In this document: in pieces, positions 1 to 17,653 of the stretch | Position numbering within the stretch: position 1 is the first letter of the stretch | How the letters are laid out: every line of letters starts with the position of its first letter | Origin: a virus | DNA length: 27,488 bases | Reading direction: 5' to 3' (one strand) | Virus record (IMG/VR): IMGVR_UViG_3300032265_000426 | Span: 1-27,488 of that record | The notes under the pieces: model-generated | What the model was told of the DNA's origin: nothing | Database searches by the model: none | Seen by the model: only the letters and a program-made list of their open reading frames with translations | Position numbers and translations under genes: made by a program

Positions 1-1467
1 GCTCCTGCTAGTGCGGGTACACGTATTTGGAACCAAGTGAACTGGGGCCAAAATCTAGTCTACGGCCCTCGTGGTTTTCCTTTGTACTACTGGGATGCTA
101 CTGTTGGGTATCAGGCTACAACAGTTTCAATTTCTAACGCTACTCCATGCGTTGTTTCATGTAGCTTAGGTCTTGCAAATTTAACACCCATCACGCTGGC
201 TACAACTGGAGCGCTACCTACAGGTTTGCTGCCGGGAACTACCTACTACGTAAGATATATATCTTCTAGTTCATTTAATTTGTCCCTTACCCCAACTGGG
301 GCGCTTATTAATACTTCTTCTGCTGGATCAGGTACGCAGTCTATTTCCCCTCGTGGGGTTTTGCTGTCTAGCCTTGCGGGGTCTGATGGCTACTGCCCGC
401 TCTACCAAAACACGTTTACTGTATCTGATGCCAGCCGGTTCCTGCTTGTGTTTGGTACAAACGATTACGGTAGCACTACGCTTGACCCCATGCTTATTCG
501 CTGGTCAGATCAGGAGTCTTTGACCACATGGCTTCCATCAATTACCAATCAAGCTGGTAGCGTGCGTCTGTCGCATGGTTCCAAAATTGTCACTACCTTG
601 CAAAGCCGTCAAGAGATTTTGGTGTGGACAGATTCCTCCCTGTATTCCTTGCAGTACCTTGGACCGCCGTATGTCTGGAGTTCACAAATTCTTGCGGACA
701 ATATTTCTATCATTGGCCCCAATGCCGCAGCTATGGCTTCTGGCGTTAGCTACTGGATGGGCGTGGATAAGTTCTACAAATATGATGGTCGCGTCCAAAC
801 CCTCCGCTGCGATCTACGTCAATATATCTATAGTGATATAAATCTAGCGCAATCTGAACAAGTATTTGGCAGTACCAATGAAGGCTTTAATGAAGTTTGG
901 TGGTTTTACTGTTCAGAAAACAGTAACACTGTAGATAAGTATGTTATTTACAACTACACTGAAGACCTATGGCAATACGGCTCAATGGCCCGTACGGCTT
1001 GGTTAGATACGGGTTTACGTAATTACCCCCTTGCGGCTACATACAGTTATAACATTGTGCAACATGAGTATGGAGTGGATGACAACGAAACGGCAACCAC
1101 GCTCCCAATTGCTGCATCCATAACATCTTCCCAGTACGATATTGGGGATGGGCATAATTTTGCATTTGTGTACCGTATGCTGCCTGATTTAACTTTCCGT
1201 GGATCAACCGGCGGCACAACCCCCGCCGTAACTATGTACCTTCAGGGATTAAATAATTCAGGCTCTGGCATTACACAGTCGGGCAGCGCTGGGGTTACAT
1301 ACAACGGCACGGCTCCTTCGGTTATTAACGTCGATGAGTTTACAGGTCAGATATACATCAGGGTTCGGGGTCGCCAAATGCAGATGCAGATTACGTCTAA
1401 CACGCTTGGTACGCAATGGCAACTTGGCTCTCCCCGTATTGATATGAGACTGGATGGGCGTAGGTAA
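1..1467 (+). CDS. Phage tail/DNA-stabilisation protein (P22 gp10-like), 5' truncated
   Basis: The reading frame is open from the first base, and the first candidate start (a GTG at 37) has no ribosome site, so the gene begins upstream of the window; 488 residues are visible. The aromatic-rich repeats around nt 660-1000 (Tyr-Trp-Met-Gly, Phe-Tyr-Lys-Tyr-Asp-Gly, Glu-Val-Trp-Trp-Phe-Tyr) and the C-terminal RGRQMQMQI...LGSPRIDMRLDGRR pattern resemble P22 gp10-type stabilisation proteins and related podovirus tail-tube/nozzle proteins, which close the portal channel and connect it to the tail. A Thr/Ser/Gly-rich insert with a TTYYV motif at about nt 150-345 looks like a small beta-sandwich of the kind often found in phage tail proteins. 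It overlaps the next gene by one base. The assignment comes from remembered sequence patterns and was not confirmed by a search. Confidence 0.72.
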   Translation, partial: APASAGTRIWNQVNWGQNLVYGPRGFPLYYWDATVGYQATTVSISNATPCVVSCSLGLANLTPITLATTGALPTGLLPGTTYYVRYISSSSFNLSLTPTGALINTSSAGSGTQSISPRGVLLSSLAGSDGYCPLYQNTFTVSDASRFLLVFGTNDYGSTTLDPMLIRWSDQESLTTWLPSITNQAGSVRLSHGSKIVTTLQSRQEILVWTDSSLYSLQYLGPPYVWSSQILADNISIIGPNAAAMASGVSYWMGVDKFYKYDGRVQTLRCDLRQYIYSDINLAQSEQVFGSTNEGFNEVWWFYCSENSNTVDKYVIYNYTEDLWQYGSMARTAWLDTGLRNYPLAATYSYNIVQHEYGVDDNETATTLPIAASITSSQYDIGDGHNFAFVYRMLPDLTFRGSTGGTTPAVTMYLQGLNNSGSGITQSGSAGVTYNGTAPSVINVDEFTGQIYIRVRGRQMQMQITSNTLGTQWQLGSPRIDMRLDGRR

Positions 1468-2910: not shown

Positions 2911-2920
2911 GGAGAATACT

Positions 2921-3919
2921 ATGTCTGGTGGCGGCGGCGCAAGTGGTGGCGGGGCTCCGGCTGGAGGAGTAGGCGGCTATGGTACTGGGATGGGTAATCC
3001 TAGTATGGGCGGCGGTGGTGGAGGTGGGCCAAGCGGCCCCGGTGGTGGAGGTGGGCCAAGCGGCCCCGGTGGTATGGGCGGTGGCGGTGGTTATGGCGGG
3101 AACTCAAATGCTGTACCTCAAGGCGGTAGTGATTTTAATAGTGGTTTTGGCATGGGTATAAGTGGCGCTGGCATGGGTGCTGGTATAGGTTCTGGCATGG
3201 GGCAAAACAATACCAATGGGCAGTTCTTCCAACCCATATATCGTGGGCAATATCAAGATTACGGGAACCCATACGCATCTAACAATGTAAGCCAGTACGG
3301 GATGGGGCAACAACGAGGGTTCCAACAACCTTCTCCCTATAACCCGTTTAGTGGTTACGGTGGTATGGGTGGCGGTGGCTATGGTTACGGCGGTATGGGT
3401 GGCGGTTATGGTGGTATGAACCAAGGTTATGGTGGTATGGGTGGCGGTGGCTATGGTGGCTTTGGCGGTGGCTCTCCTTTTGGTAGGGGTATGGGTAGGG
3501 GCTACGGTGGTATGCAACAGCAAAGTTATATGAATCAAGCCACTCAAATGCCGCAAGGTTACAGTAGTGGGTCGGATATTCCACCCGGGGGCTACGGTGG
3601 GCAACGCCAAACACAAAACTACGGCGATTTAGCTGGCTTGCAAACCCTGCCAGCACAAGTACCACAAGACTACTCCCCTGCTAGTTCTCAAGATGCGGGT
3701 ATGAACCAATACCGTGGTGGGCCAAATGGGCTATCAAGTTACGGCGGTGGGCCAGCCACTGCGCCAGCAGCCCAAGGTTTAGGTAACCAACCAAGTTTTA
3801 GTGGCCCCGGTGGTTTTGCTAGTATGTTGCAAGGTCTTGGCGGGCCAGCTCAACAACCTTCATACCGCTACAGCGCTTTTGCAGAAGGTGGTATTACTTC
3901 TTTAGTGGATAAAGAATGA
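2921..3919 (+). CDS. Glycine/methionine-rich virion-cassette protein ending in FAEGGI
   Basis: This 332-residue protein starts at the ATG at 2921, six bases after an AAGGAG that spans the stop of the preceding gene; an in-frame upstream GTG at 2876 lies inside the previous gene and lacks a ribosome site. Most of the chain is GGMGGGGYGG-type sequence with scattered Tyr, Gln and Asn, so it is probably disordered or a flexible sticky filler rather than a fold. The only distinct part is the C-terminus, with FAEGGI at 320-325, which echoes motifs in the flanking genes. Its stop overlaps the next start (ATGA). Function is unknown; a structural or internal virion role is inferred from position. Confidence 0.72.
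   Translation: MSGGGGASGGGAPAGGVGGYGTGMGNPSMGGGGGGGPSGPGGGGGPSGPGGMGGGGGYGGNSNAVPQGGSDFNSGFGMGISGAGMGAGIGSGMGQNNTNGQFFQPIYRGQYQDYGNPYASNNVSQYGMGQQRGFQQPSPYNPFSGYGGMGGGGYGYGGMGGGYGGMNQGYGGMGGGGYGGFGGGSPFGRGMGRGYGGMQQQSYMNQATQMPQGYSSGSDIPPGGYGGQRQTQNYGDLAGLQTLPAQVPQDYSPASSQDAGMNQYRGGPNGLSSYGGGPATAPAAQGLGNQPSFSGPGGFASMLQGLGGPAQQPSYRYSAFAEGGITSLVDKE
3014..3067 (+). repeat. 27-bp perfect tandem duplication
   Basis: Two adjacent identical 27-base units (3014-3040 and 3041-3067) encode two copies of a nine-residue GGGGPSGPG block in the Gly-rich protein. Because the copies are identical at the DNA level, this looks like a recent in-frame slippage or recombination event. Confidence 0.85.
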
Positions 3920-4347
3920 CCCTTTTTATACGCCACGTTGAGACTGAACATATCCAGCAAATCTGGCCTGTAGTGCAGCCTTTTATTGAAGAGGCTATGC
4001 AAAAGGGTGGGGATTTTCCTGACTGGGCGCAGTCATACAACGTGGCGCATATCCAAGCATTCTTAACCGTTGGGCAATGGCTTTTATTGGTAGCCGTTGA
4101 TGAAGAAAATAAAATCCACGGGGCGGCAACCGTATCGTTTATCAATTACCCTCTGCATAGAGTGGCGTTTGTAACTACCATTGGTGGAAAACTTATATCA
4201 AGTGAAGACACTATGGAACAGCTAAAGCTCTTGCTAAAACAACGTGGCGCAACGAAAATACAAGGATATGGGCGTCCAGCCATAGTACGCTTGTGGAAAC
4301 GCTACAACTTTGAACCCAGAAATACTTTAGTCGAGGTGCTTATATGA
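3916..4347 (+). CDS. Small GNAT-like acyltransferase-fold protein in virion cassette
   Basis: This 143-residue protein starts in an ATGA overlap with the preceding stop. Its layout resembles a minimal GNAT fold: an N-terminal strand and helices (residues 1-50), a central strand pair around LLLVAVDEENKIHGAATV (75-92), another strand AFVTTIGGK, a helix KLLLKQRGATK, and the closing RLWKRYNFEPRNTLVEV typical of the last GNAT helix and strand. The usual acetyl-CoA loop (Q/R-x-x-G-x-G/A) is not clear, so it may be catalytically degenerate. Proteins of this size and fold occur beside internal virion genes in T7-like and other podoviruses, where a role in ejection-complex assembly is plausible. Function here is inferred. 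Confidence 0.65.
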   Translation: MTLFIRHVETEHIQQIWPVVQPFIEEAMQKGGDFPDWAQSYNVAHIQAFLTVGQWLLLVAVDEENKIHGAATVSFINYPLHRVAFVTTIGGKLISSEDTMEQLKLLLKQRGATKIQGYGRPAIVRLWKRYNFEPRNTLVEVLI

Positions 4348-6407
4348 GCAGTGGCGGCGGCAGCAGTGCTCCAACTCAAACAAATGTTACGCAGTCAAAC
4401 ATTCCTGACTGGCTTCGCCCTCAAGTTGAGCAAGTACTTGGTGGGGCTACGCAACAACTATTTAATGTAAATAAAGATACTGGGCAGATAGAAGGTTCTA
4501 AACCATTTATACCTTACAGTCAAAACCCACAAGATTACGTAGCTGGGTTTAGCCCCTTGCAGCAACAAGTTCAAGGGAATGCTGCAAACCTACAGATGCC
4601 GGGGCAGTTCGATCAAGCTACTCAATTAGCTAATATAGCGGGTCAAGGCGGGTTAAATACCGCAGCGCAAGGCGCTGGCTACGGGCAAGCTGGGTTCCAG
4701 TCTGGTATGCAAGGTCAAGGCATGGGGCAGCAAGCGTATGGGCAAGCCAACCGAAATGCCAACATGGCACAAGGTCAAGCGTATGGCTATGGCGCACAGG
4801 GCGCTGGTTATGGCTCACAAGGCGCTGGCTACGGTGCGCAAGGTCTGGCTATGGGACAGCAGACAGCCGCCCAAGCGGCCCAAGATGCCGCAGCGGCACG
4901 CAGTGCATCGTATGGTTATGGTGCGCAAGGCCAACAGGCTGGGCAAATGGGCCAACAACTTGGTATGCAGGGCGGCACTAACTATGGTGGTATGGGCGCT
5001 GGCTACGGTTCCCAAGCTGCCGGTCTAGCTGGTCAAGCACAAGGCTATGGTGGTATGGGCGCTGGCTACGGTTCCCAAGCTGCTGGTCTAGCTGATAGGG
5101 CGTTGGGTTATGGAGACTTGTCCTCGCAAATTGGGCAAATGGGGTTAAACGCCCAGCAAACAGGCCAAGGCATTACGGCGCAGTCACAAGATTTAGCACG
5201 CCAACAAGCTGCGGCAGGGCAAAACTATGCCCAGCAAGCTACTGACCCCGGCGCGTACCAAAAGTACATGAATCCGTACACGCAAAATGTAACGAATATA
5301 CAGAACCAAGAGTTACAACGTAACGCCGATATTGCTTCAACTAAACGTGGTGCGCAGGCTGCAAATGTTGGTGCTTTTGGTGGTTCACGGCAGGCTATTG
5401 AGAATGCTGAAGCGCAGCGTAATCTGCAACAATTGCAAAATCAAAATCAAGCTACTGGCGCTCAGCAGGCGTATGACCGAGCCCAGCAAAACATGCAGTA
5501 CGGGGCAGGGCTTGGCCTACAAGGTTTAAGTGGCGCTCAATCTGGCTTAGGCACTGCGCTGCAAGGTGGGCAACTTGGCCTATCAGGTATTGGCACTGCG
5601 CTACAAGGGCAACAAAATGCTATGTCCGGTGTTGGGCAAGCTGGCGCGATGTACGGTCTTGGCATGCAAGGTGCGCAGTCTGGACTAGCTGGCCTTAACG
5701 CCGCTAACCAAGCGTATCAAACAGGTATCCAAGGTTCACAAGCTGGCCTTGCAGGTGTAGATAGGTCTTTGGCTGGTACGGCACAAGGCATGCAGGGTGC
5801 TGGGTTGGGGCTTCAAGGGACTGGGCAAGCTATCAACGCTGGTCAACTTGGCATTCAAGGCGGTCAAGCAGGTATGCAGGGTGCTGGTTTGGGTATCCAA
5901 GGCTCTCAAGCCGGTATGCAAGGTTCCCAAACTGGGCTCCAAGGTGTTGGTCAGGCTATTAACGCCGGTCAATATGGGCTTCAAGGTGCGCAAACCGGTA
6001 TGCAAGGTACGGCCCAAGGTATGCAAGGCGCTGGTGTAGGACTCTCGGGAGTCGGGGCTCAACAAGCTGGATATGGTGCAGCGGGTCAAATGGCTGGGCA
6101 ACTGGGTAATCTTGGTAACTCTCAGCTTGCAGCCCAGACGGGCATATTGGGTTTGCAGAACCAGATTGGTGGTCAACAGCAGAACCAGATGCAACAGTAC
6201 ATCAACAATGCGATTAACAACTATGCGCAGGCGCAGCAGCAGCCGATGCAAAACCTTAACGCCTTTAATGCACTACTGCGTGGGTATGCAGTGCCGGGGC
6301 AGACTACAACTCAGTATCAAGCAGCACCTAGCGGTATGTCGCAACTTGCAGGTCTTGGTCAAATGGGTATTGGTGGTTTAGGTTTGTATAACGCAATGAA
6401 TCGCTAG
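4344..6407 (+). CDS. Gly/Gln heptad-repeat internal virion or ejection-type protein
   Basis: This 687-residue protein starts in an ATGA overlap, with GAGGTG upstream. Residues 1-90 are non-repetitive (IPDWLRPQVEQVL and a Pro/Tyr-rich segment). Residues about 100-255 and 390-575 are built from seven-residue units of the type x-x-x-G-hydrophobic-Q-G. Between them is a distinct block (about 305-365): NPYTQNVTNIQNQELQRNAD followed by GAFGGSRQAIENAEAQRNLQ, a helical signature that I associate with podovirus internal or DNA-ejection proteins. The C-terminal 110 residues are Gln-rich and helix-prone. No enzyme motif is seen. Position suggests a virion interior or ejection role. Confidence 0.7.
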   Translation: MSSGGGSSAPTQTNVTQSNIPDWLRPQVEQVLGGATQQLFNVNKDTGQIEGSKPFIPYSQNPQDYVAGFSPLQQQVQGNAANLQMPGQFDQATQLANIAGQGGLNTAAQGAGYGQAGFQSGMQGQGMGQQAYGQANRNANMAQGQAYGYGAQGAGYGSQGAGYGAQGLAMGQQTAAQAAQDAAAARSASYGYGAQGQQAGQMGQQLGMQGGTNYGGMGAGYGSQAAGLAGQAQGYGGMGAGYGSQAAGLADRALGYGDLSSQIGQMGLNAQQTGQGITAQSQDLARQQAAAGQNYAQQATDPGAYQKYMNPYTQNVTNIQNQELQRNADIASTKRGAQAANVGAFGGSRQAIENAEAQRNLQQLQNQNQATGAQQAYDRAQQNMQYGAGLGLQGLSGAQSGLGTALQGGQLGLSGIGTALQGQQNAMSGVGQAGAMYGLGMQGAQSGLAGLNAANQAYQTGIQGSQAGLAGVDRSLAGTAQGMQGAGLGLQGTGQAINAGQLGIQGGQAGMQGAGLGIQGSQAGMQGSQTGLQGVGQAINAGQYGLQGAQTGMQGTAQGMQGAGVGLSGVGAQQAGYGAAGQMAGQLGNLGNSQLAAQTGILGLQNQIGGQQQNQMQQYINNAINNYAQAQQQPMQNLNAFNALLRGYAVPGQTTTQYQAAPSGMSQLAGLGQMGIGGLGLYNAMNR
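4982..5094 (+). repeat. 63-bp-period tandem duplication within heptad array
   Basis: A 50-base segment at 4982-5031 recurs at 5045-5094 with a single C/T difference. The period is 63 bases, 21 residues, exactly three heptads. The array has therefore expanded recently by a whole number of heptads while staying in frame and in register. Confidence 0.85.
5509..6060 (+). repeat. Degenerate 21-bp (heptad) coding repeat array
   Basis: About 26 consecutive seven-residue units, such as QAGMQGA, GLGIQGS, QTGLQGV and QYGLQGA, keep a Gly-hydrophobic-Gln-Gly core with variable flanks. GQAINAG units recur at intervals inside the array. Copies differ in codon choice, so this is an old array held at the protein level, unlike the fresh duplication at 4982-5094. 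Confidence 0.75.
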
Positions 6408-6421
6408 GTTAAGGAATAATC

Positions 6422-8308
6422 ATGAGTCTCGATAGCATAAAAGATGAAATGACCCGCCGTGCGTCTGATTTGGCTACGCAAGCACAAAAGTCAAATGACC
6501 CAAAAGAAATACAACGTATCCAACAACTTCTTGTACAGGGTGTGCAAAGTGGTCGGCTTCAGTCGTATGTTGGTATTCCGTTAATTAAAGAGTTAACAGA
6601 CAGTTTGGCAAAAGCTCAAGCCGTTGCAACCCAAGGAGCAATGGGTACACCCCCTGCTCCTGCTGGCCCTCCCCTTGCACAACAAGTTATGTCCCAAGCT
6701 CAACGAGCTGGTGGGGTTGATCAATTACCTAGCAACTTGCCAACGCAAGGCTATGCTCATGGTGGCATTGTGGCGTTTGCTGAAGGTGGCAATACTGATG
6801 GGCACGGCGTTCAGCATTTTGAAGAGGGTGGTACTCCGCTTGAACGGTGGTGGGGCGGGGTAAAACAAAGTTTTGGAGAAGACCAACAAAAAGCGGCATT
6901 ATTAACCCAGTTAAAAAACCAATATGGCCCTGCTTCTGCGCCTGTTGGGATGTTTATGCAGCAAAGTGATGCAGAACGGCAAGCAGCTAAAAGTATTATG
7001 GATGTTCTTAATAGTCGTGGGGCGCAACTTACTATGGGGCAGTTGCAAGACCTTAAAGACCAAGGGATTACTGCATTACCAAGTATTCCTACTCCCGGAA
7101 CTCCTGCGGCTCCTCCGGCTGTGACTCCTCCTACTCCTGTAGCTGCTCCAGTAAGCGGGGATAAAACTAAAGCCAATTCCTTACGTTCTGCGGTTAATCC
7201 AACAGAACCTAAACCAGTTTCAGCAGTTTCTTTGTTGCAAAACTCTATGGGTAATATGCCTACTGGCGGCGGCGCAGTTGGCGGTGGTGGTATTAGTAAT
7301 CTTAAATTGCCACAGATGCAAGATATTGCGGCTCCAAAATTGGTTGATTATAGCCAGTTTTATAATGATTTACCAAACAAAGCTAAAAAGGCATCAGAGA
7401 ATGCCGTTAAGTCAGCGCAAGAAGAAATGGATGCAGCAGATAAACCCGGTTTTGATGCACGTGAAGCCCGACAAAAAACTCGGGAAGCATCAAACGATAA
7501 AGACCGCTTGATATCGCTTTACTCTGGGATCATTAAAGGTGGCGCTAAAACACTTGCTGGAAAATCCCCATTTGCTGCCGAGAATATTGGGGCGGGAATG
7601 GAAACAACTGTAGACGCTGTTACCCAAGGTGAGGCTGCTTACCGCAATGCTAGGGACAGGCTGGAAGATGCACGCGATAATTTAGATGCACAGAAAGCTG
7701 CTGCCAAGAAAGGTAACATGCAGTATGCAGCGCAGCGTGGTGATCAGGCAGCTAACCAGTTTACCCAAGCACAACAATTTGCCATGACAGGAGCGCATTA
7801 CGGCAATTCTGATGCCATGCAGTTACATAACTCTTTACAAACTGGTGCATATCAAAGAGCCAGTTTAGAGCAATCAGGTGTATTAGGTTTAGCAGGGCTA
7901 AAAAACCAAGCCGCTGGTTTAGGGTTACAAGCACAAGGTCTAGCATTACAAGGCAAGCAACTCTTTTTGCATGCCCAGCAAATGGATAACACGCTTGCGT
8001 TCCAAAATAAACAATTGGGTATGATGGCAGAGCGTTATAAAGCTATGGATAAAGCATCCCAAGCCCGTATGCAGATGGCACAAGCAACTGCGCTTGCTAA
8101 TTTCGATAAGAACGAAGGCCAAGCAATTAAGGCAATGCTTGCTCAAAAATACAACAACCCTAATTGGATGGTTGGTAATGACCAAAATAGTTTAACAGCG
8201 CAAAAAGAATATGCAGCGCATAGAAATAGTTACTTGTTAGATGCTCAAATGGGTGCAGAAAAAGATGATTCAGTACGTGATGCACGTAGCCTTATAAATG
8301 CGGAGTAA
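6422..8308 (+). CDS. Coiled-coil internal virion-type protein with AEGG motifs
   Basis: This 628-residue protein has AAGGA six bases before the ATG. Residues 1-75 are helical (DSIKDEMTRRASDLATQAQK). GYAHGGIVAFAEGG at 110-123 and HFEEGG at 132-137 echo motifs of the two upstream low-complexity genes. A Pro-rich linker (about 220-290) leads to a long helical, charged and Gln-rich half (about 300-628) with likely coiled coils such as ARDRLEDARDNLDAQKAAAK. No catalytic motif is evident. Its size, helical content and position just before the giant protein fit an ejection-complex or internal core component, by analogy with T7 gp15 or P22 gp20/gp16. This is inference, without recognisable sequence homology. 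Confidence 0.68.
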   Translation: MSLDSIKDEMTRRASDLATQAQKSNDPKEIQRIQQLLVQGVQSGRLQSYVGIPLIKELTDSLAKAQAVATQGAMGTPPAPAGPPLAQQVMSQAQRAGGVDQLPSNLPTQGYAHGGIVAFAEGGNTDGHGVQHFEEGGTPLERWWGGVKQSFGEDQQKAALLTQLKNQYGPASAPVGMFMQQSDAERQAAKSIMDVLNSRGAQLTMGQLQDLKDQGITALPSIPTPGTPAAPPAVTPPTPVAAPVSGDKTKANSLRSAVNPTEPKPVSAVSLLQNSMGNMPTGGGAVGGGGISNLKLPQMQDIAAPKLVDYSQFYNDLPNKAKKASENAVKSAQEEMDAADKPGFDAREARQKTREASNDKDRLISLYSGIIKGGAKTLAGKSPFAAENIGAGMETTVDAVTQGEAAYRNARDRLEDARDNLDAQKAAAKKGNMQYAAQRGDQAANQFTQAQQFAMTGAHYGNSDAMQLHNSLQTGAYQRASLEQSGVLGLAGLKNQAAGLGLQAQGLALQGKQLFLHAQQMDNTLAFQNKQLGMMAERYKAMDKASQARMQMAQATALANFDKNEGQAIKAMLAQKYNNPNWMVGNDQNSLTAQKEYAAHRNSYLLDAQMGAEKDDSVRDARSLINAE

Positions 8309-8311
8309 ACC

Positions 8312-11300
8312 GTGATTATTAATCTACCCAAACTTGGGCCAGTACGGTTTGACGATAATTTATCTACTGAACAATTTCATGCGCAGCTTAATGCGCTTCA
8401 ACAAAAATACGATTTTCAATTACCAAAACCTGACGTAGGTATTGGCACCTTGCTCAAGCAAGGTTTCATGCGTAGTATGGGGGAAACAGGTATCGCCCTT
8501 GGTGATGTCATCCCCGCTATGGGTGCGTCTGCGCTTGGGTTTGATGATTACGCCAAGAAACAAATGGGGGAAGCAGCAGCTTCTCGTGAACAATTACAAC
8601 AAAAATACCCCACACAATTTAATTCATACAAAGAAGTTAGTAGTCCTTACGAAGCCCTCCAGTATGGGGCTGAGACGTTGGGTGAGCTTGCACCAACCGC
8701 ATTGACTGCCATGATCCCCGGTGTTGGCGCAGAGGCTTTAGGTGCGCGTGTGGCTGCGCGTGGTGCTATGGGTGCAGCTATGGAAGCTGGCCCCTTGACC
8801 GAGGCTGCAATGGCAGCAGCACAAACAGGTGCTAAAAAAGCCGCAGAGACTGTAGGCCGTCGTGCAATGTATGGTGGTGTGTACCTTGGCTCTCTGGCCC
8901 AGAACGCTCCAGAAATATTTCAAAACATCTATGACGAAACCGGCAAGATGGAGCCGGGTATTGCTGCTTTAGCGGGTGGCATTTCCTCAGTGCTAGATAC
9001 CATAGTGCCCGGGGATGTAATGGATCAGTTGGGTAAGTACGGCAAAATGAAAGCAATTGCAGAGATTGCCAAAGAGTCCGGTGCTGCGCCCAAGGTGTGG
9101 AAATACATGCTTGGAAGTGCTGCCAAAGATGCAGCAATGGAAGGTCTTACAGAATCTGCTCAAGAAATCATTGGGGCCACAGCAGAAAAAGTTGCTGGAA
9201 GTAGTAAAGACGTATTCTCCCCAGAAAACATTCAACGCTATAAAGAGAATTTTGTTAAAGGCGCAATTGGTGGCGCTGGCTTTGGCGTACTCGGTGGGTT
9301 TGGTGAAGGCGCACGGGCTAAACACGAATACCGTAACTACCAAGAAGCTGAAGACTTTGTTAAACAACTACGCGCCAAAGAGGAAGCTGCGGGAACACTT
9401 ACCCCTGAGAAGGCAGCGCACTATGACGAGCAGATTGAAGGTTATCGTACTCAGCGCCAAGCAGATTTAGAAGCTGCATTTGAGGGATTACCTGACTTTG
9501 CGCAACGTCAAGAAGAGATGAAGGCGTTGCAAGCACGTATGGATGAAGCACGTCCGGGATCTAAAGCCTATAAAGACTTAACTGCTGATCTTCAAAAAAT
9601 GCGCGATGATGCAGAGGCTGCACGTAACAAGCAGTTGGAGGAAGAACAAAAAGCCGATGCTGAGAAAGTGGCAGGTAGTGCATTTGCCAAAGCGGAACCT
9701 ACTCCCGGTACTGGAGGGATGTTTAAACCGGGGCTTGAGCAACAGCGCGGAGAACAACAATCTGCCACACGCCAGTTTGCATTTGGAGATACTGCATCCG
9801 CTTTAGCAGGTGATCCAGTTACTGTAGACACCCTAAAAAACTTGAGCATCTCAGACCGTTCTACTACGGGTATTAGTTTGCTTGGAACTGATCTTGATAC
9901 GGTAGACGGTCGTCGTAAATTTATACAGACGTTGGAGAACCCTAGCTTCACAGGCAAAATTAACGAAGAGGCTTACGATGCTATCGTTAGTACGTTTGAC
10001 CCTAAAGAAGTTGTTGCACATCGTGCAGAAATGCAAGCTGAGAATATCTCTCCCACTAAACAGAAACAGCAACAACAGACAAGACAATTTGCCTTTGGAG
10101 AACCAGATGTTACAGGAACTAACACTACACCAAGTGGAGCAAGCCCTGATGTGGCTGGACAGTCCGAAACAGGGACTGTACCCAAGCGATCTAAAAAATC
10201 TGAACGAAGTGGATTGGCTAGTACTACAGAATCTACTGATAACACTGCAACAGGAGAAGGCCAGCAGTCTAGTGCATTAAATGAAAACGCCCCTACTACA
10301 GAAAATACGACTGCAAATGTTACTCCTGCTACTGAAAATACCAGTACTACCGAAACGAGTACAACACCACCTACTAATACAACTTCTGAAAATTTAAATA
10401 CAAATGGCACTCAAACCTCTGAAACCCAGCAAACAGAAACGCAAAGACAAGAAGCACCAGCAACCGGAGTAACAACCGAAACTCCAACGCCACGTGGGGT
10501 AACAGCGCGTCCTGATTTATCCGCAGAACTGGGCGTGATTCGGCAGAAGCTGGGTGTTGCTAAGTCTAAGTTGACTGGCATTGCAAAAGACGCGCATGCT
10601 TACTTTAGTAAGGTAGTGCCGGAACTTGCGTTAGATGCAATTGCCAACGACTTGGTATATCAACCTACGGCATACCGTAACTCAAACATGACACTGCCTA
10701 GCGTAACTACGCCGGGCACATTTGCGCCAACCCCTGAACCCACTTTTCACCTTGCTGAAGAATCTAAATTCCACGCAGGACAGGGGGGCGTTCACGCTAA
10801 AAATGCTGCTGCATGGGCACGTGCAAATCTGTCTCCCGAAGCTGTAGCCTTTATGGATAGCAAGATTGCCCAGTATCAAAAGGAAGCCGAGCGATCCAGC
10901 AAATCACGTAAAAAATTAGATAAGCAGCAAGCTCTTAGTAAAGCTACTGGTGTACAGGTTGCTGAAGAATCTAAAGCTGCCAAAGAGGAAGGTGACTACG
11001 CACCTACCCTGCAAGAACTTGAAGAAGCTAAAGGTACAAAAACTCTAGCAGGTAAACGTAAGAAGAACTTACAAAAACTTGCCAATGAGTTGTCGTCTGA
11101 TGCTGACTTATATGGCTCGTTTGATGATGTCGTTGATACTGATACTGGCGGCATTCTTCCTGCTGATGAAAATGCTGCGGCGTTACATTCATCGGCGCAC
11201 CCGGTGACCCTACATCAACTAGAGAACAACAACTTGGTAGGTGCGCTTAACGCTCTGGCGGATAACGCTTCGTCTGACTTTGCCAAGTTTTTTGCGCGTA

Positions 11301-14300
11301 TATTATCCAAAGTTGTTGGTAACGTAAATCTAGTATATGGGGCAGAACGCTCTATGTATGACCCAAAGACCAACACCATCTATTTGCGTGATGGTGCGTC
11401 TGAGTATGAAATACTGCATGAGTCAGCACATGCTGCCTTGTCGCACACCTTGGACAATGCTTCCCACCCAATAACCCGTCAAATTAAGACGTTGTTTGAA
11501 GCCATGAAAAAAGGGACAGAGGGTACGTATGGTGCAAAAGACATACAGGAATTTGTTGCAGAGGCTTGGAGTAATGAAGATTTCCGCAACCAGCTAAAAG
11601 AATTTAAACCCACTGGCGAAAAATTTACCGGTTGGGAAAAGTTTATGAAAGCCATACGGCAGTTCTTTGGTTTAAAAACAAAACCTGAACATACAACTGC
11701 ATTGGATGCGCTTGACCGGATGCTTAACGAGATTGTTAGTCCACCACCTGAGACACGCACGGGAGAAACGCTCTATGCCCAAGCTGCTACTAAACCAAAC
11801 ATAGCACAAGAAACTTTAGCGCGTATGGAAACGGTTATGCGCAGGCAACCTGTAATGAACAGTGAACGGGTTGTTGGATTTTGGAAAGGGTTAGAAAAAG
11901 TCAATGCGTTTGGACGTTTGGCAATGTATAAAACCCTTAACCTCTCAGCACTTGGTGAAATTGGTACCCGTATATTTGGTGAAAACTCCAAACTTTTTGC
12001 CAATCGCATCAATGAAATGGAAGGATATAAAGAACATTTGATGGAGGCTATGGCTCCGTTGCACCGCCGACTCCAAGAATTTCAAAGCTCTGAACGCTAC
12101 CAAGCATGGTCTGATTTAGTAGATGCTGCCACAATTCCTGACATCCGTCCTTATGATGAGGCACGTTCTAGGTATATAGGTACAGGCAAATTTGCAGAAT
12201 ACGAGGCGCTTAATAAGCGTTGGAAACAATTAACACCAGACGAGCAAAAACTGTACAAAGATTTATTTGCCACCTACAAAGCCCTTGATGGTGAGTTTAT
12301 AAAATCGTTAGAGAAGAACATCAAAGGTACAGTAGATGATCCCGGTAAAGCGTTATCTGCGTACCAAAAGATTTTGCAAGAGCTTTCTACTGTACGTATT
12401 GATCACTATGCTCCACTGTATCGTGAAGGCCCGTTTTGGCTGCAATACGATGTTAATGGCGTAACAGAGAAAAAAGCGTTTAGCAGCCAAGCTGAACGTA
12501 ACTTTGCGCGTCAACAACTTCAGACAAGTGGCGCAACCAATTTTGATGAGTACTCTAGAGTTCAGCAAATTAACTCTAAAAATATTCCTGATGGGACAAT
12601 GCTTGCCTCAATCATGGACATCATGAAAAAAGCGGGAGCAGGAGAAGAAGACTTAAACAAGTTAATACAACTTATTGTGCAGTCTTTACCTGAAACTAGC
12701 ATTCTTAAAAGTCGCCAAAACCGTACCGGCATTGGTGGTTACATCCAAAACGCAAGCTACGTATTTGATCGGGTTAGCAGTAACAGCGCACGGCAGCTTG
12801 CCCGTATGCGGTATGCCCCTGAAATTAAAAACCTGCTCACAAAAATGGGCGAGGATGCCAACACTATGCGTGGGCAAGAACAAATTTATGCAATCGAATT
12901 ACATAAAGAGTTTGCGCAGCGTGGGCAGTTTGCCATAACCCCTAACTTATCCAATTGGTCACAGACTGCAAGCTCTAGTGCTTTTTACTTTAACCTAGCA
13001 GGCAATGCATCTACCGCACTGATACAAGTTGTACAGACTCCAATGGTTACCTTCCCGCATTTGGGGGGTGTATATGGTTGGGGTAAGGCAAAAGATGCAA
13101 TGTTTAAAGCCTTCAAACTGTATAAAGAGAGCGGCTTGTCCCGCAACGTCGCTGAATTAGGCGGCGATGTATCCCAACAGAAAGCAATGCTTTCTATTGA
13201 AAATGCGGTTAACAATGGCAAAGCCCCACAGTACAAAGCATTGATTGAAGCCATGAAACTTCATGGACTATTGCAAACATCTACTGCAAGAGATGCCCTG
13301 AGTTCTGTTAACAACGATAAATCTGCTTATGGTGGCGTATCAAAAATACAGCGTGTAACTACGTTGGTAAGCTCTTTTATGTTCCACCATGCCGAACGTA
13401 TGGGTAGGGAAATTACTGGTGTGGCAGCTTATGATTTGGAAATGGATCGCCTTAAATCTAAGGGCATTACAGGCGAAGAAGCACAGAAGCAAGCCATTGC
13501 TAAAGCAATTTATACGGTAGAGTACACGCATGGTGCTGGTAGTACAGCGGCTGGCCCAAGCATAGCGCAAAGCGATATTGGTAGAACTTTGATGGTGTTC
13601 AAGCGTTACGCTTTCAGCATGTATCACATGTTGTTTGACACCATGCTCCGTGCGTTGCCAGTTAAAGGAGCAGCAGGCGAACAGTTAGAACAAATTAAAG
13701 CAGCGCGTAGGCAGCTTCTTGGCATCTATGGCATGAGCGCATTGTTCTCAGGTATTAAGGGTTTACCCTTGTATTGGATTATGCAGATGGCTTATGACGC
13801 AGTTAAAGATAAAGACGACGATGACTTTGATACGGTCATGCGCCGGTACATCCATGAGTTTGCGTTTAAAGGCCCAGTCAATTACGTATCTAACTTAGAC
13901 CTTGCAAGTCGTGTGGGTTGGACAGACTTGTTGTGGCGTGAAAATAAAGGTGCCAAAGCAGATGCTGGGGTCATGCAGCAGTTTGCGGAAGCTGCATTTG
14001 GCGCACCGTGGTCAATGGGTGACAGTATGTACCGTGGATACAAGTTGATCCAAGAAGGAAACATAGAGCGCGGTATTGAGACTATATTGCCTGTAAGTAT
14101 CCGCAACATCTTTAAGGGTAGTCGATACGCCTTACAAGGCGCTAACACGCTACGTGGTGATCCTGTAATGGGGGATATCAATGGCTACAACGCTGCTATG
14201 CAAGTGCTTGGGTTTGCTCCTGCTGACTTGATGAAACAGTACGAAGAAAATGCCTACATCACTAACAAGGCCAAGACAATTCATAAGGAAGAAAACGATC

Positions 14301-14536
14301 TCTTGCGGCAGTACTATGTTGCTCTGCATGAAAACGACTATGACCGCATGCAAGCTCGTAGGGCTGACCTTATGAAACTTGGCGCTAAGTATCCTGAACT
14401 TGGTATCAACGATGCATTCCTTTCAAAATCTGTGGCTGCACGTGACCGCATTACCAGCCAAATGTATCACGGCGTACAGGTAGATCAGAAGCTGAAAGAA
14501 CGTCTCCGTGGGGCTGCTGCTACAGCGTATGAATAA
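8312..14536 (+). CDS. Giant polyvalent/ejected virion protein with HExxH zincin domain
   Basis: This 2074-residue protein starts at a GTG with GGAG six bases upstream. Layout: a short N-terminal module (1-40, LPKLGPVRFDDNLSTEQFHA); Gly/Ala-rich hydrophobic helices that could cross a membrane (about 120-340); a coiled coil (about 390-455); two TRQFAFG motifs at 486-492 and 590-596; a Thr/Ser/Asn-rich linker (about 600-730); a zincin-type metallopeptidase domain with HESAH at 1036-1040 and EFVAEAW at 1080-1086, which supplies a likely third ligand or conserved Glu; long helical regions; and a hydrophobic C-terminal part (about 1550-1840) resembling LPD38-type regions of phage polyvalent proteins. 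Such proteins are thought to be packaged and injected with the DNA. It ends the + operon. The zincin call is good; the substrate is unknown. Confidence 0.78.
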   Translation: MIINLPKLGPVRFDDNLSTEQFHAQLNALQQKYDFQLPKPDVGIGTLLKQGFMRSMGETGIALGDVIPAMGASALGFDDYAKKQMGEAAASREQLQQKYPTQFNSYKEVSSPYEALQYGAETLGELAPTALTAMIPGVGAEALGARVAARGAMGAAMEAGPLTEAAMAAAQTGAKKAAETVGRRAMYGGVYLGSLAQNAPEIFQNIYDETGKMEPGIAALAGGISSVLDTIVPGDVMDQLGKYGKMKAIAEIAKESGAAPKVWKYMLGSAAKDAAMEGLTESAQEIIGATAEKVAGSSKDVFSPENIQRYKENFVKGAIGGAGFGVLGGFGEGARAKHEYRNYQEAEDFVKQLRAKEEAAGTLTPEKAAHYDEQIEGYRTQRQADLEAAFEGLPDFAQRQEEMKALQARMDEARPGSKAYKDLTADLQKMRDDAEAARNKQLEEEQKADAEKVAGSAFAKAEPTPGTGGMFKPGLEQQRGEQQSATRQFAFGDTASALAGDPVTVDTLKNLSISDRSTTGISLLGTDLDTVDGRRKFIQTLENPSFTGKINEEAYDAIVSTFDPKEVVAHRAEMQAENISPTKQKQQQQTRQFAFGEPDVTGTNTTPSGASPDVAGQSETGTVPKRSKKSERSGLASTTESTDNTATGEGQQSSALNENAPTTENTTANVTPATENTSTTETSTTPPTNTTSENLNTNGTQTSETQQTETQRQEAPATGVTTETPTPRGVTARPDLSAELGVIRQKLGVAKSKLTGIAKDAHAYFSKVVPELALDAIANDLVYQPTAYRNSNMTLPSVTTPGTFAPTPEPTFHLAEESKFHAGQGGVHAKNAAAWARANLSPEAVAFMDSKIAQYQKEAERSSKSRKKLDKQQALSKATGVQVAEESKAAKEEGDYAPTLQELEEAKGTKTLAGKRKKNLQKLANELSSDADLYGSFDDVVDTDTGGILPADENAAALHSSAHPVTLHQLENNNLVGALNALADNASSDFAKFFARILSKVVGNVNLVYGAERSMYDPKTNTIYLRDGASEYEILHESAHAALSHTLDNASHPITRQIKTLFEAMKKGTEGTYGAKDIQEFVAEAWSNEDFRNQLKEFKPTGEKFTGWEKFMKAIRQFFGLKTKPEHTTALDALDRMLNEIVSPPPETRTGETLYAQAATKPNIAQETLARMETVMRRQPVMNSERVVGFWKGLEKVNAFGRLAMYKTLNLSALGEIGTRIFGENSKLFANRINEMEGYKEHLMEAMAPLHRRLQEFQSSERYQAWSDLVDAATIPDIRPYDEARSRYIGTGKFAEYEALNKRWKQLTPDEQKLYKDLFATYKALDGEFIKSLEKNIKGTVDDPGKALSAYQKILQELSTVRIDHYAPLYREGPFWLQYDVNGVTEKKAFSSQAERNFARQQLQTSGATNFDEYSRVQQINSKNIPDGTMLASIMDIMKKAGAGEEDLNKLIQLIVQSLPETSILKSRQNRTGIGGYIQNASYVFDRVSSNSARQLARMRYAPEIKNLLTKMGEDANTMRGQEQIYAIELHKEFAQRGQFAITPNLSNWSQTASSSAFYFNLAGNASTALIQVVQTPMVTFPHLGGVYGWGKAKDAMFKAFKLYKESGLSRNVAELGGDVSQQKAMLSIENAVNNGKAPQYKALIEAMKLHGLLQTSTARDALSSVNNDKSAYGGVSKIQRVTTLVSSFMFHHAERMGREITGVAAYDLEMDRLKSKGITGEEAQKQAIAKAIYTVEYTHGAGSTAAGPSIAQSDIGRTLMVFKRYAFSMYHMLFDTMLRALPVKGAAGEQLEQIKAARRQLLGIYGMSALFSGIKGLPLYWIMQMAYDAVKDKDDDDFDTVMRRYIHEFAFKGPVNYVSNLDLASRVGWTDLLWRENKGAKADAGVMQQFAEAAFGAPWSMGDSMYRGYKLIQEGNIERGIETILPVSIRNIFKGSRYALQGANTLRGDPVMGDINGYNAAMQVLGFAPADLMKQYEENAYITNKAKTIHKEENDLLRQYYVALHENDYDRMQARRADLMKLGAKYPELGINDAFLSKSVAARDRITSQMYHGVQVDQKLKERLRGAAATAYE

Positions 14537-14622: not shown

Positions 14623-14826
14623 TTAATTGATCCGCCAGAATCTTACTCCCTGTGTGCCTTTTTCCAACGTAAAGCGGTGCTTCACATTCATGTTCCGTTC
14701 TGCTGCGGATAAAACTATTTGTTTAGCAACAGCATGGCGATCTAAGCAGGGTATGTAGAAGGAACTTCCTACTACAAACTTATGCCATTCTATTACAACA
14801 GGTACAGTGTCAGCCGTTATCGACAT
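14623..14826 (-). CDS. Small conserved phage protein (GxSFYIPC / GVRFWR type)
   Basis: This 67-residue protein starts 17 bases inside the 3' end of the primase-helicase gene and runs to the terminator region. It has two recognisable blocks, VGSSFYIPC (residues 19-27) and a C-terminal EKGTQGVRFWRI, with a basic helix between them. Small phage proteins with a G-x-SF-hydrophobic-IP...G-hydrophobic-R-hydrophobic-WR pattern are widespread near replication genes and unassigned. Last gene of the minus operon; a nucleic-acid-binding role is possible but unproven. Confidence 0.72.
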   Translation of the reverse strand: MSITADTVPVVIEWHKFVVGSSFYIPCLDRHAVAKQIVLSAAERNMNVKHRFTLEKGTQGVRFWRIN

Positions 14827-17653
14827 CTATTTCAGGTGTTTCCGCTTCAGGATCTAGCTCTTTTGCAACAGAGCAGTCAATCATCATTGCCAAAACCGAG
14901 GGAGTAGTGAGGTCAGATCCTTTGGACAGGCTCTTTTTGACCAAACCCTTCATTACTTTCATGGTTTTTAAATCAGAGGTCAACGCCTTATAAGAGATTT
15001 GGTTGATGCTGCACCATTCACGTAGCCCCCGTGCTGCAATGAACAACATCTTTTGGTCAGGCTCGTAACGTATCAACAACTCTCCACGGGGTTCCCTGAT
15101 TGGCGCTTCGGTTAGTCCTGTACGTTTATCAACATTGCTATTTACGATCAACATATTATTAGTCTTCTCGTTAAGGAACATACCAATACGACTCAAGGGG
15201 CCGGTGTTGTCAGCACGTACATCTAACCGCAAGTTACCAAGTCTTTCAACTGCCCATTTATAAACTAAAGCTACGTCAATATCATGTAGCCCCAACTTCT
15301 TGGTGATGATTCCTGATGTGATGGCGCAAGCAGCAGTAGCTGACCAAAAGCGTTCCCGTTGTGTAAACCCTGCGGCTTTATCTAATTTACGCTGCACCGC
15401 AGCAAGCAAGCGTTTTACTTCGGGGAGGTTGGTAATCACATACCGTATAAAGATTTCCCCTGCCACACCATAATTCTCATACATCGGGTTGAACATGGCA
15501 TCGGATTCAGCCTTACTAAGTGAATCGTTCTTGGCTACGTTCAACTCAATAATCCGCATCAACTCACCTTCAGGAAAGTCCTTGAGGTTGTACAACTGAT
15601 CGTACAAACTTTTGTTACCTGATGTAATTGCAATCGACGACCAGCGTAATGAATTGCTACGCTCTGCATTGGTTTGCGATTGCATCCGGTTTCGACCACG
15701 ACCATGCGTCATAGCATAAGCCATGCTGCTGACTTCCTCGTCATCCATATTGGTCAACTCGTCAATCGTTGGTGGCAAATTTCCAAGTACAGCAATCCTA
15801 TGCATACGGGCAAGATATTTATCTTCTTGGTTCAATAAAGGTTCAACAGGTCTTCCCCATATGCTGTTAATCAAAAGCTGGATGGTAGTTTTACCCACTC
15901 CGCTACCATTGTTTGTCAGGTGAATGATTGACCCATTGAGCTTTGTATACTTAAAGAGGGCAGACCCGAACCCTGCAAATAATGTGAACGCACGTACTTC
16001 GTTCCCGGCTGCTGCGTAAATGTTTGCTACCTTTTTCCACTCGGTGATTGTTCCTTTTTTGGTATAGAAACTGGCAGTCTCTGATGTTGCAGATGATGAC
16101 GGGCTGAAATTAACCCCTGATGCTGTTATCTCACGGTTGCCAATAATGAATTTGCTATCGTCTTCATGCCAACCAAACTGCTGCCGTGCCTTCTCAGCCT
16201 CAGTCAAATGTTGTAGTTCCTGAACCCATTTAGTCACGTATCCCATAAGTACATCCAATCTTTTGTTATAAGCAGCTACACCTTGATAAGCCAAAACTTC
16301 CCGAAATTTATCCTTGGACAAAACGCTGGAAAGAGGGGCAGAGAATTCACGGATACCATCTTTGGGCATATGTAAACGCATCCACAAAGATTCTCCAGCG
16401 TCAGGATCAGTCAGGCGCTTAACAACATAGAAGTCGTACTCATAAATCAACTCGTCTTTGTTGTCTTCGCCCTTCTCATTCTTACCCCAACCACGCTTAT
16501 AGACCCCGCCATTTTTTCCCCTGAAATATGGGTATGGGTATTCAGGGATTTCAACTGTCATGTCTTCTTCTAAGACTGCATTGCGCATTACAACGATGTT
16601 GTCTTCTGCCTTGGCCTCTGCAATACGTGACCCAATTTGTATGGGTGATGTAATCTTTCCTTTGTGGGGGCAGTCCTGACATAGCGTTGAGTTAATGCTT
16701 GCAAACGTGGTGCACTTGTACGGCTTATCGCGTAGTGCCATCGCCTTGTTGTAAGTCTCTTGCGGATCGTACTCAGAATGCTGATTAGATATCTTGTGAA
16801 TTGATAGGTCACCGTCTTCGCAATTAACCGCAATGGATAACCCCGCTCTCCACAACGGCTCCTCTACCGTTTCTTGTTCTTTGTAAATCCGTACCAGTTG
16901 CGCACACCCTTCACCCTCGGCACTTTTGCGCATGATCGCAGAGAAACGGGATATGCTGTTACCCATCAAAGCGCGAGTCGTGGCATCTATTGGGCGGCGC
17001 GGTGCATCCGAACCAAACAAGCTACCGTTATCTTCGGGCTCCTCTTCGACACCTATCAACATCTTGAACCGTGCGAGTTCAATAGGTACTCCATGAACCA
17101 ACACACCGACAGATTTTGGTGGGTTGTCTTTAAAGTTAAGCGTATCTGGGATCCGTAAAATACGTGCCGCATCTGCGGTAACTGCGGGATCAGCAGATAG
17201 GTTGTAGGTAGCACAGAATTTCTTCAGTGCCTCGGCTGTTGGCTTCCAATCGTTGTAGCCAATTGTTTCCGTGAGTGTCCAATAAACATGTATGCCGCGC
17301 CCTGAGTTGACTATAGTAGGCCGAGGTAGTCCATTTGTTTGAACAAATTGTTTGAGTGCGATAAGCGCCGCAGCTTGGGTAAGGTAGGGCTTAGTTTCGC
17401 CACAATCAAGATCCAACCAAAAAGCCTTGAACCATTTAGCGTTCTTAGCTGTTCTGCCTTCACTATCATCAAGGTACTTTGCACATCCAAAATATGTGTC
17501 GTACCCTTGTGCGATTAAACCTTCTACTAGCCCGTCAATCTCATCAATTGTTTTTACAAATGTCTGCCTCGGTGTACCTTTTTTCAACCCAACCACGCAG
17601 TACAAACCGTCATCGGCAAGCACAGAGGTGAGGAAAGTATTCCGTGTTGTCAT
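14810..17653 (-). CDS. Primase-helicase fusion: AEP primase plus DUF927-type helicase
   Basis: This 947-residue protein should prime and unwind DNA at the fork. The N-terminal archaeo-eukaryotic-type primase (PrimPol) part shows the metal-binding DLD at 81-83, the NSGRGIHVYW segment at 116-125 with the expected His122, and RILRIPDTLN at 164-173. Cys314, Cys325, Cys328 and His330 form a probable metal site linking to the second half. That half has a Walker A (NNGSGVGKTT, 581-590, Lys588) and a Walker B-like PPTIDEL (627-633), in a DUF927-like context. A terminator-like hairpin lies just upstream, and only a weak AAGAG ribosome site is visible. It overlaps the next small gene. Confidence 0.85.
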   Translation of the reverse strand: MTTRNTFLTSVLADDGLYCVVGLKKGTPRQTFVKTIDEIDGLVEGLIAQGYDTYFGCAKYLDDSEGRTAKNAKWFKAFWLDLDCGETKPYLTQAAALIALKQFVQTNGLPRPTIVNSGRGIHVYWTLTETIGYNDWKPTAEALKKFCATYNLSADPAVTADAARILRIPDTLNFKDNPPKSVGVLVHGVPIELARFKMLIGVEEEPEDNGSLFGSDAPRRPIDATTRALMGNSISRFSAIMRKSAEGEGCAQLVRIYKEQETVEEPLWRAGLSIAVNCEDGDLSIHKISNQHSEYDPQETYNKAMALRDKPYKCTTFASINSTLCQDCPHKGKITSPIQIGSRIAEAKAEDNIVVMRNAVLEEDMTVEIPEYPYPYFRGKNGGVYKRGWGKNEKGEDNKDELIYEYDFYVVKRLTDPDAGESLWMRLHMPKDGIREFSAPLSSVLSKDKFREVLAYQGVAAYNKRLDVLMGYVTKWVQELQHLTEAEKARQQFGWHEDDSKFIIGNREITASGVNFSPSSSATSETASFYTKKGTITEWKKVANIYAAAGNEVRAFTLFAGFGSALFKYTKLNGSIIHLTNNGSGVGKTTIQLLINSIWGRPVEPLLNQEDKYLARMHRIAVLGNLPPTIDELTNMDDEEVSSMAYAMTHGRGRNRMQSQTNAERSNSLRWSSIAITSGNKSLYDQLYNLKDFPEGELMRIIELNVAKNDSLSKAESDAMFNPMYENYGVAGEIFIRYVITNLPEVKRLLAAVQRKLDKAAGFTQRERFWSATAACAITSGIITKKLGLHDIDVALVYKWAVERLGNLRLDVRADNTGPLSRIGMFLNEKTNNMLIVNSNVDKRTGLTEAPIREPRGELLIRYEPDQKMLFIAARGLREWCSINQISYKALTSDLKTMKVMKGLVKKSLSKGSDLTTPSVLAMMIDCSVAKELDPEAETPEIDVDNG

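What the first reader, a model, noticed from the sequence alone, without database searches (positions are those of the whole stretch)
8312..14536. 2074-aa probable ejected polyvalent protein with a HESAH zincin centre
HESAH (nt 11417-11431, residues 1036-1040) is followed 40 residues later by EFVAEAW, the pairing seen in metallopeptidase domains of phage polyvalent proteins (known class: large proteins packaged and injected with DNA). Here the peptidase lies between hydrophobic N-terminal helices, a disordered linker and a hydrophobic C-terminal region, at the end of the virion cassette. Inferred: it enters the cell at infection and may cleave a host protein or itself. No substrate is known.
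Basis: partly seen in the sequence, partly recalled or inferred. Interest (0 to 1): 0.65.

Follow-up and report, generated by a model that had tools for sequence, protein, structure and literature searches.

The report
Injected phage protein with zinc protease
A short-tailed phage from a metagenome encodes a 2,074-residue protein that it very probably packs in its head and injects into the host, with an apparently intact zinc protease in the middle; the same protease is also present, labelled 'endolysin', in injected proteins of well-studied phages such as phiKMV and PhiM1.

Summary
In detail: ORF 8312-14536 (2,074 aa), HESAH at residues 1036-1040, EFVAEAW at 1080-1086. Among 77 distinct zincin domains from 110 viral relatives, H1036, E1037, H1040, Y1073 and E1084 are invariant and E1080 varies once (Asp). 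Profiles and a predicted structure place the domain with HExxH-Tyr-Glu zincins (anthrax lethal factor, Pro-Pro endopeptidases). The C-terminal third is LPD39 followed by the PLxRFG/tail-700 domain (E 1.8e-102). The gene ends a virion cassette. 'Polyvalent protein' therefore holds; LPD38 does not, and neither does 'DarB antirestriction', a label the databases would transfer. Packaging and injection are inferred, not shown. Added here: the zincin is homologous (hhalign 99.2%, E 8e-20) to a domain of T7-type tetrameric ejection proteins (PhiM1 gp48, phiKMV gp37, KP34 gp48, VP93 gp34), where it is annotated 'endolysin'. Most likely an ejected protein whose zincin acts after delivery. Whether it cuts a host protein or the phage protein itself is undecided; I lean away from simple constitutive self-cleavage. 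It is a new member of a known kind, with one useful cross-family link.

The parts
8312..14536 (+). 2,074-aa ejected/polyvalent protein (PLxRFG/tail-700 family) with central zincin
   Evidence: 110 viral relatives
8312..9346 (+). conserved N-terminal region, residues 1-345; mildly hydrophobic, no known domain
   Evidence: about 50% column identity and dN/dS 0.06-0.20; no Kyte-Doolittle window above 1.4
9347..10579 (+). variable, Thr-rich linker region, residues 346-756; length differs between relatives, and two of them hold a second zincin here
   Evidence: (dN/dS 0.12-0.36)
10580..10951 (+). short conserved stretch before the zincin, residues 757-880, function unknown
11174..11806 (+). zincin metallopeptidase domain, residues 955-1165
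   Evidence: alignment A3; AlphaFold2 pLDDT 81.7; fold neighbours are zincins; PDB profile hits
11417..11431 (+). HESAH, residues 1036-1040: predicted Zn ligands H1036 and H1040, general base E1037
11528..11530 (+). Y1073, invariant; aligns with the catalytic Tyr728 of lethal factor
11549..11569 (+). EFVAEAW, residues 1080-1086: E1080 predicted third Zn ligand, E1084 invariant second-shell residue
12011..12388 (+). LPD39-like domain, residues 1234-1359
   Evidence: 26.1 bits, cut-off 27; 7 of 10 relatives pass the cut-off
12404..14497 (+). tail-700 / PLxRFG C-terminal domain, residues 1365-2062
   Evidence: NF032893, 344 bits against a cut-off of 100, E 1.8e-102; model pLDDT 79 without a PDB fold match
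12413..12430 (+). PLYREG, residues 1368-1373, this protein's form of the PLxRFG motif
1..1467 (+). neighbour: virion structural protein (phrog_3287), 5' end off the window
   Evidence: E 9.6e-48
3916..4347 (+). neighbour: small protein with weak resemblance to GNAT acetyltransferases; an annotated GNAT gene sits in the same slot of cultured relatives
   Evidence: synteny
4344..6407 (+). neighbour: Gly/Gln-rich protein; its homologue in another phage weakly matches a 'DNA ejection protein' family
6422..8308 (+). neighbour: 628-aa protein directly upstream, function unknown, in the position of an internal virion protein

Best explanation
The protein is the large ejection protein of a short-tailed phage. 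It is made last in the virion cassette, packaged in the head and expelled into the host with or ahead of the DNA (inferred from domain and gene order). Its C-terminal LPD39 + tail-700 module is the conserved module of the PLxRFG giants (shown by sequence). Its central domain is a catalytically complete zinc endopeptidase, with H1036, H1040 and E1080 as zinc ligands, E1037 as general base and Y1073 as the acid/transition-state residue (inferred from alignment to lethal factor). The protease most likely works after delivery, on a protein of the host envelope or cytoplasm or in a triggered cut of the ejected protein, rather than as a constitutive maturation protease in the head. The trans and the triggered-cis route cannot be told apart here; I lean to trans.
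For: Identity: tail-700 E 1.8e-102; LPD39; giant PLxRFG proteins of Skulduggery, ZX1, Parlo and others match residues 1295-2066. Zincin: invariant catalytic set; alignment with lethal factor, including the Tyr and the third Glu at the same Tyr-to-Glu spacing of 7; the recognisable PDB fold matches at the top of the list are zincins; BFVD hits to polyvalent proteins, N4-type virion RNA polymerases and internal core proteins, E 6e-10 to 1e-3. Ejection: same gene order (GNAT-like gene, 2-4 proteins, giant) as cultured relatives; virion structural gene upstream; homologous zincin in ejection proteins including PhiM1 gp48, seen in the head by cryo-EM. Selection: zincin dN/dS 0.02-0.16 against 0.12-0.36 in the linker. 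Against constitutive self-cleavage: N4 vRNAP, with an HExxH domain, is packaged unprocessed (PMC5512222) and was solved as full-length recombinant protein (PMC12633501). For trans: two relatives carry a second, diverged zincin with the motif intact.
Against: No proteomics and no activity data for this family. E-values of the PDB fold search are weak (best 0.11). The zincin sits at a fixed junction just before tail-700, which would also suit self-cleavage. N4's zincin lacks the Tyr, so it is an imperfect precedent. No host or substrate is known.
Confidence: 0.5

Rival explanations
1. Self-processing protease: the zincin cuts its own polypeptide, separating the N-terminal half from the LPD39/tail-700 module, during assembly or on arrival, as Iyer et al. 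propose for polyvalent proteins.
For: P1 DdrB, with a C-terminal metallopeptidase domain, is cleaved before packaging (PMC5512222). In 6 of 8 cultured giants an HExxH lies about 150-280 residues before tail-700, as here. A Pro-rich segment with near-invariant P1146 and R1149 follows the domain.
Against: N4 vRNAP is not processed, and no cleavage is reported for PhiM1 gp48. No other enzyme domain was recognised that would need release.
Confidence: 0.32
2. Structural zincin: the domain keeps its fold and metal for stability in the head or for refolding after passage, without cutting anything.
For: phiKMV gp37 and N4 gp50 keep HExxH and Glu but lack the Tyr, so reduced forms exist.
Against: The general base and the Tyr are invariant in 77 of 77 distinct domains of this family.
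Confidence: 0.13
3. Peptidoglycan-degrading 'endolysin/exotransglycosidase' domain, as annotated for the homologous region of PhiM1 gp48 and its relatives.
For: Published annotation of PhiM1 gp48 268-528 (PMC11440229) and database names such as 'internal virion protein with endolysin domain'.
Against: Profile and fold matches are to zincin proteases, not to lysozyme or transglycosylase folds.
Confidence: 0.04
4. The motif is a chance HExxH in a protein of another kind.
For: None beyond the shortness of the motif.
Against: Expected count 0.03 and invariance in all relatives.
Confidence: 0.01

Closest known systems
Phage-type polyvalent proteins with zincin-like MPTase domains (Iyer et al. 2017, PMC5512222)
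   Same: Large phage protein at the end of late genes, zincin with HExxH and a Glu on a later helix, LPD39, possible second zincin in relatives
   Different: No methylase, helicase, RNA polymerase, ADP-ribosyltransferase or lysozyme domain recognised: the zincin is the only known enzyme domain
PLxRFG / tail-700 giant proteins (NCBIfam NF032893; Skulduggery, Parlo, ZX1, Pavtok)
   Same: C-terminal 700 residues and gene order; most also carry an HExxH shortly before tail-700
   Different: About half the length (2,074 against 3,000-5,000 aa); the 'DarB-like antirestriction' name reflects N-terminal domains absent here
T7-type tetrameric ejection proteins with a cryptic zincin (PhiM1 gp48 = PDB 8vb2; phiKMV gp37, same length and kind as PDB 9sfn chain G; KP34 gp48; VP93 gp34)
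   Same: Homologous zincin domain (hhalign 99.2%, E 8e-20), position in the ejection cassette, weak collinear similarity of the C-terminal parts
   Different: E1084 is Gln in PhiM1-type proteins; the C-terminal match is not significant (24.6%, E 8e-4) and the N-terminal parts do not match
Coliphage N4 virion RNA polymerase gp50, C1 domain
   Same: HExxH zincin followed by a large helical C-terminal region; related virion RNA polymerases appear in the fold search
   Different: RNA polymerase cargo; Tyr absent; C2 shows no detectable similarity to tail-700
HExxH-Tyr-Glu zincins: anthrax lethal factor and Pro-Pro endopeptidases
   Same: Catalytic residue set and Tyr-to-Glu spacing, zincin core fold
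   Different: Only weak global similarity (E 0.1-1 in PDB searches); different context, no claim of the same substrate

Membership tests
Phage-type polyvalent protein (Iyer et al. 2017) | Large multidomain protein with catalogued polyvalent domains (MPTase, LPDs) | tested here: met
   Zincin and LPD39: 26.1 bits in the window protein, just under the cut-off of 27; 7 of 10 relatives above it
Phage-type polyvalent protein (Iyer et al. 2017) | Linked to packaging/late genes | tested here: met
   Directly follows the virion cassette; same order in cultured phages
Phage-type polyvalent protein (Iyer et al. 2017) | Delivered with the DNA | not testable with these tools
   Needs virion proteomics
PLxRFG / tail-700 (NF032893) | Full-length domain match above the curated cut-off | tested here: met
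   344 bits against 100, profile positions 2-680 of 681
Zincin metallopeptidase | HExxH plus downstream third ligand, conserved | tested here: met
Zincin metallopeptidase | Zincin core fold | tested here: met
   Model pLDDT around 90 in the core; recognisable PDB neighbours PPEP-1/2/3, ArdC, PprI (E 0.1 or weaker); BFVD neighbours E 6e-10 to 1e-3
Zincin metallopeptidase | Zn binding and proteolysis | not testable with these tools
   Needs biochemistry
MPTase-PolyVal (PF18818) | Match above the curated cut-off | tested here: not met
   Only 1 of 54 domains, at E 0.066
LPD38 | Pfam match | tested here: not met
   No match at E 0.1
DarB-like antirestriction | Adenine methylase + SWI2/SNF2 helicase | tested here: not met
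   The phrog_10089 match covers only profile positions 4024-4639 of 4647 in its best stretch; no methylase or helicase in Pfam
T7-type tetrameric ejection protein | Shared zincin (PhiM1/phiKMV type) | tested here: met
   hhalign 99.2%, E 8e-20
T7-type tetrameric ejection protein | Homologous C-terminal part | tested here: inconclusive
   24.6%, E 8e-4; above all 30 block-shuffled controls
T7-type tetrameric ejection protein | Homologous N-terminal region | tested here: not met
   hhalign probability 0.2%

The most novel reading that the evidence does not exclude
A single zinc endopeptidase module is a common but unrecognised working part of podophage DNA-ejection machines. It is shared by PLxRFG giants, N4-type virion RNA polymerases and T7-type tetrameric ejection proteins, and acts on the cell envelope or on the ejectosome itself during genome entry. 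The helical C-terminal parts of the PLxRFG giants and the T7-type proteins would be ancient homologues.
Probability: 0.3. Interest if true: 0.75.

Novelty: new member of a known kind. Interest (0 to 1): 0.5.

Why it matters
The protein itself extends a known class. The useful part is the link. Cryo-EM structures of podophage ejectosomes already exist, and an HExxH zincin sits in them under the name 'endolysin-like domain' (PhiM1 gp48) or 'internal virion protein with endolysin domain' (KP34, phiKMV). If this is right, a question open since 2017, what the zincins of injected phage proteins do, becomes testable in laboratory phages such as phiKMV, KP34 or N4 by removing the active site, and existing maps can be re-inspected for zinc. 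It also warns against passing 'DarB-like antirestriction' or 'endolysin' on to such proteins.

Tried and rejected
Chance HExxH: rejected. LPD38: no match. 'DarB-like antirestriction': only the shared C-terminal part matches. Canonical membrane helices: none above threshold. Fold search of the C-terminal model in the PDB: only noise (TM-scores near 0.1). N4 C2 domain against tail-700: no detectable similarity. Enzyme cargo in the linker of nine long relatives: no Pfam domain of known function. A shared N-terminal hairpin tag: some relatives start with a PDG-hairpin motif also found at the start of ejection-slot proteins in 40-kb podophages, but the second motif type gave nothing, so it is not used as evidence for this protein. 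Host assignment: only two prophage-like hits, a Verrucomicrobiales MAG and Ca. Propionivibrio aalborgensis, too few to name a host.

Full report
CHECK. The window is a 27,488-base viral metagenome fragment. The reported gene, residues and coordinates are exact. The start is supported by relatives that begin with ATG at the same position. About 0.03 HExxH motifs are expected by chance in a protein of this composition.

CONSERVATION. Two scans of viral contigs gave 112 loci with relatives, several contigs occurring in both scans. The patterns that fetched them do not include HExxH. Of these, 110 carry a complete zincin region; the other two are cut by contig ends. In 77 distinct domains, including the window's own, H1036, E1037, H1040, Y1073, F1081, E1084 and N1088 never vary. 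E1080 is Glu in 76 and Asp in one. The spacing H1040-E1080 is 40 in 74 and 41 in 3 of the 77. The domain evolves under purifying selection: pairwise dN/dS is 0.02-0.16, against 0.12-0.36 in the linker region.

ZINCIN. AlphaFold2 from a 22-sequence alignment gave pLDDT 81.7, with values around 90 in the core. Foldseek in the PDB gave only weak E-values (best 0.11), but the recognisable matches at the top of the list are zincins: PPEP-1/Zmp1, PPEP-2, PPEP-3, ArdC, PprI. In predicted viral structures the matches are significant: large polyvalent proteins (best match E 6e-10), virion RNA polymerase of Vibrio phage phi 1 (3.5e-5), internal core proteins of Ralstonia phage RSB3 and Pseudomonas phage C171 (8e-4, 1e-3). 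The profile aligns with lethal factor so that H1036, E1037, H1040, Y1073 and E1080 meet His686, Glu687, His690, Tyr728 and Glu735 (roles in PMC3496994; residue numbering of the aligned stretch from general knowledge). E1080, not the invariant E1084, is therefore the likely third ligand. In PhiM1-type ejection proteins the position of E1084 is Gln while that of E1080 stays Glu.

REST OF THE PROTEIN. Residues 1365-2062 are tail-700/PLxRFG (344 bits against a cut-off of 100). Residues 1234-1359 are LPD39-like (26.1 bits, cut-off 27; 7 of 10 relatives pass). The phrog 'DarB-like antirestriction' matches in this C-terminal part, so antirestriction is not implied. Residues 1-345 are conserved without a known domain. 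Residues 346-756 vary in length and sequence, and in two relatives this region holds a second zincin with intact motif. No other enzyme domain was recognised in the window protein or in nine long relatives.

CONTEXT. Upstream lie a virion structural gene (phrog_3287, E 9.6e-48), a small gene with weak GNAT resemblance and two proteins of unknown function; a homologue of one weakly matches a DNA ejection protein family. Cultured phages Skulduggery, ZX1, Parlo and RHph_TM29 have the order GNAT, two to four proteins, giant protein. Six of eight cultured giants have an HExxH about 150-280 residues before tail-700. Downstream, a DUF927 primase-like gene runs in the opposite direction.

LINK TO EJECTOSOMES. 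The best PDB profile hits are PhiM1 gp48 (8vb2, E 6.5e-8), an 'internal virion protein' of 1,337 residues (9sfn chain G, 1e-6) and a 'gp10' (23sg, 0.01). phiKMV gp37 is also 1,337 aa and contains the same aligned stretches, so 9sfn chain G is probably phiKMV gp37; this identification is an inference. Profile-profile comparison with 19 distinct ejection proteins gives 99.2%, E 8e-20 for the zincin; HExxH is present in all 19. The PhiM1 paper calls residues 268-528 endolysin/exotransglycosidase-like and does not mention a peptidase (PMC11440229). The C-terminal parts show a collinear but non-significant match (24.6%, E 8e-4; score 42.3 against at most 31.6 in 30 block shuffles). This is a lead, not a result.

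MECHANISM. Shown: an intact, conserved catalytic set and the domain order. Inferred: packaging, ejection, zinc binding, proteolysis. Constitutive self-cleavage is disfavoured by N4 (packaged unprocessed, PMC5512222; full-length recombinant structure, PMC12633501), although N4's domain lacks the Tyr. It is favoured by P1 DdrB and by the fixed position before tail-700. I put action after delivery at about 0.5, self-processing at about 0.3, a structural role at about 0.13.

NOVELTY. Zincins in polyvalent proteins were described in 2017 (PMC5512222), with self-processing and host cleavage both proposed. This protein is a new member. The literature searches used here found no paper that describes the zincin of T7-type ejection proteins, but only open-licence papers were searched.

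Noticed in passing
L130 7198-10989 (PhiM1 gp48); L142, L143, L144 (KP34, phiKMV, VP93): Ejection proteins annotated 'internal virion protein with endolysin domain' or described as endolysin-like contain an HExxH zincin; PhiM1 H385, H389, Y442, E449.
   Followed up: partly
L002 and L030, around residues 860-1000 and 910-1070 of the large ORF: A second, diverged zincin (about 28-29% identical to the window's) with intact motif is inserted in the variable region.
   Followed up: partly
N-termini of large ORFs in L023, L027, L030, L032, L084, L090; L114-L117: A 35-aa N-terminal motif (PDGxxYxIxGPxGAT) is shared with ejection-slot proteins of unrelated 40-kb podophages; possibly a packaging or ejection tag.
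   Followed up: partly
window 1786-4347 and 4344-6407: Gly/Met/Gln-rich low-complexity virion-cassette proteins (374, 347 and 687 aa) without Pfam matches of note.
   Followed up: no
window 14810-17653 (-): 947-aa DUF927 primase/helicase-like protein, convergent with the giant gene; phrog_25314 E 6e-106.
   Followed up: no
A2 (window 11807-14533 and relatives) against ejection-protein C-terminal profiles: Collinear sub-threshold similarity between the tail-700 domain and the C-terminal part of T7-type ejection proteins, including PLxRFG against an SPYYFPRQYS-like stretch.
   Followed up: partly
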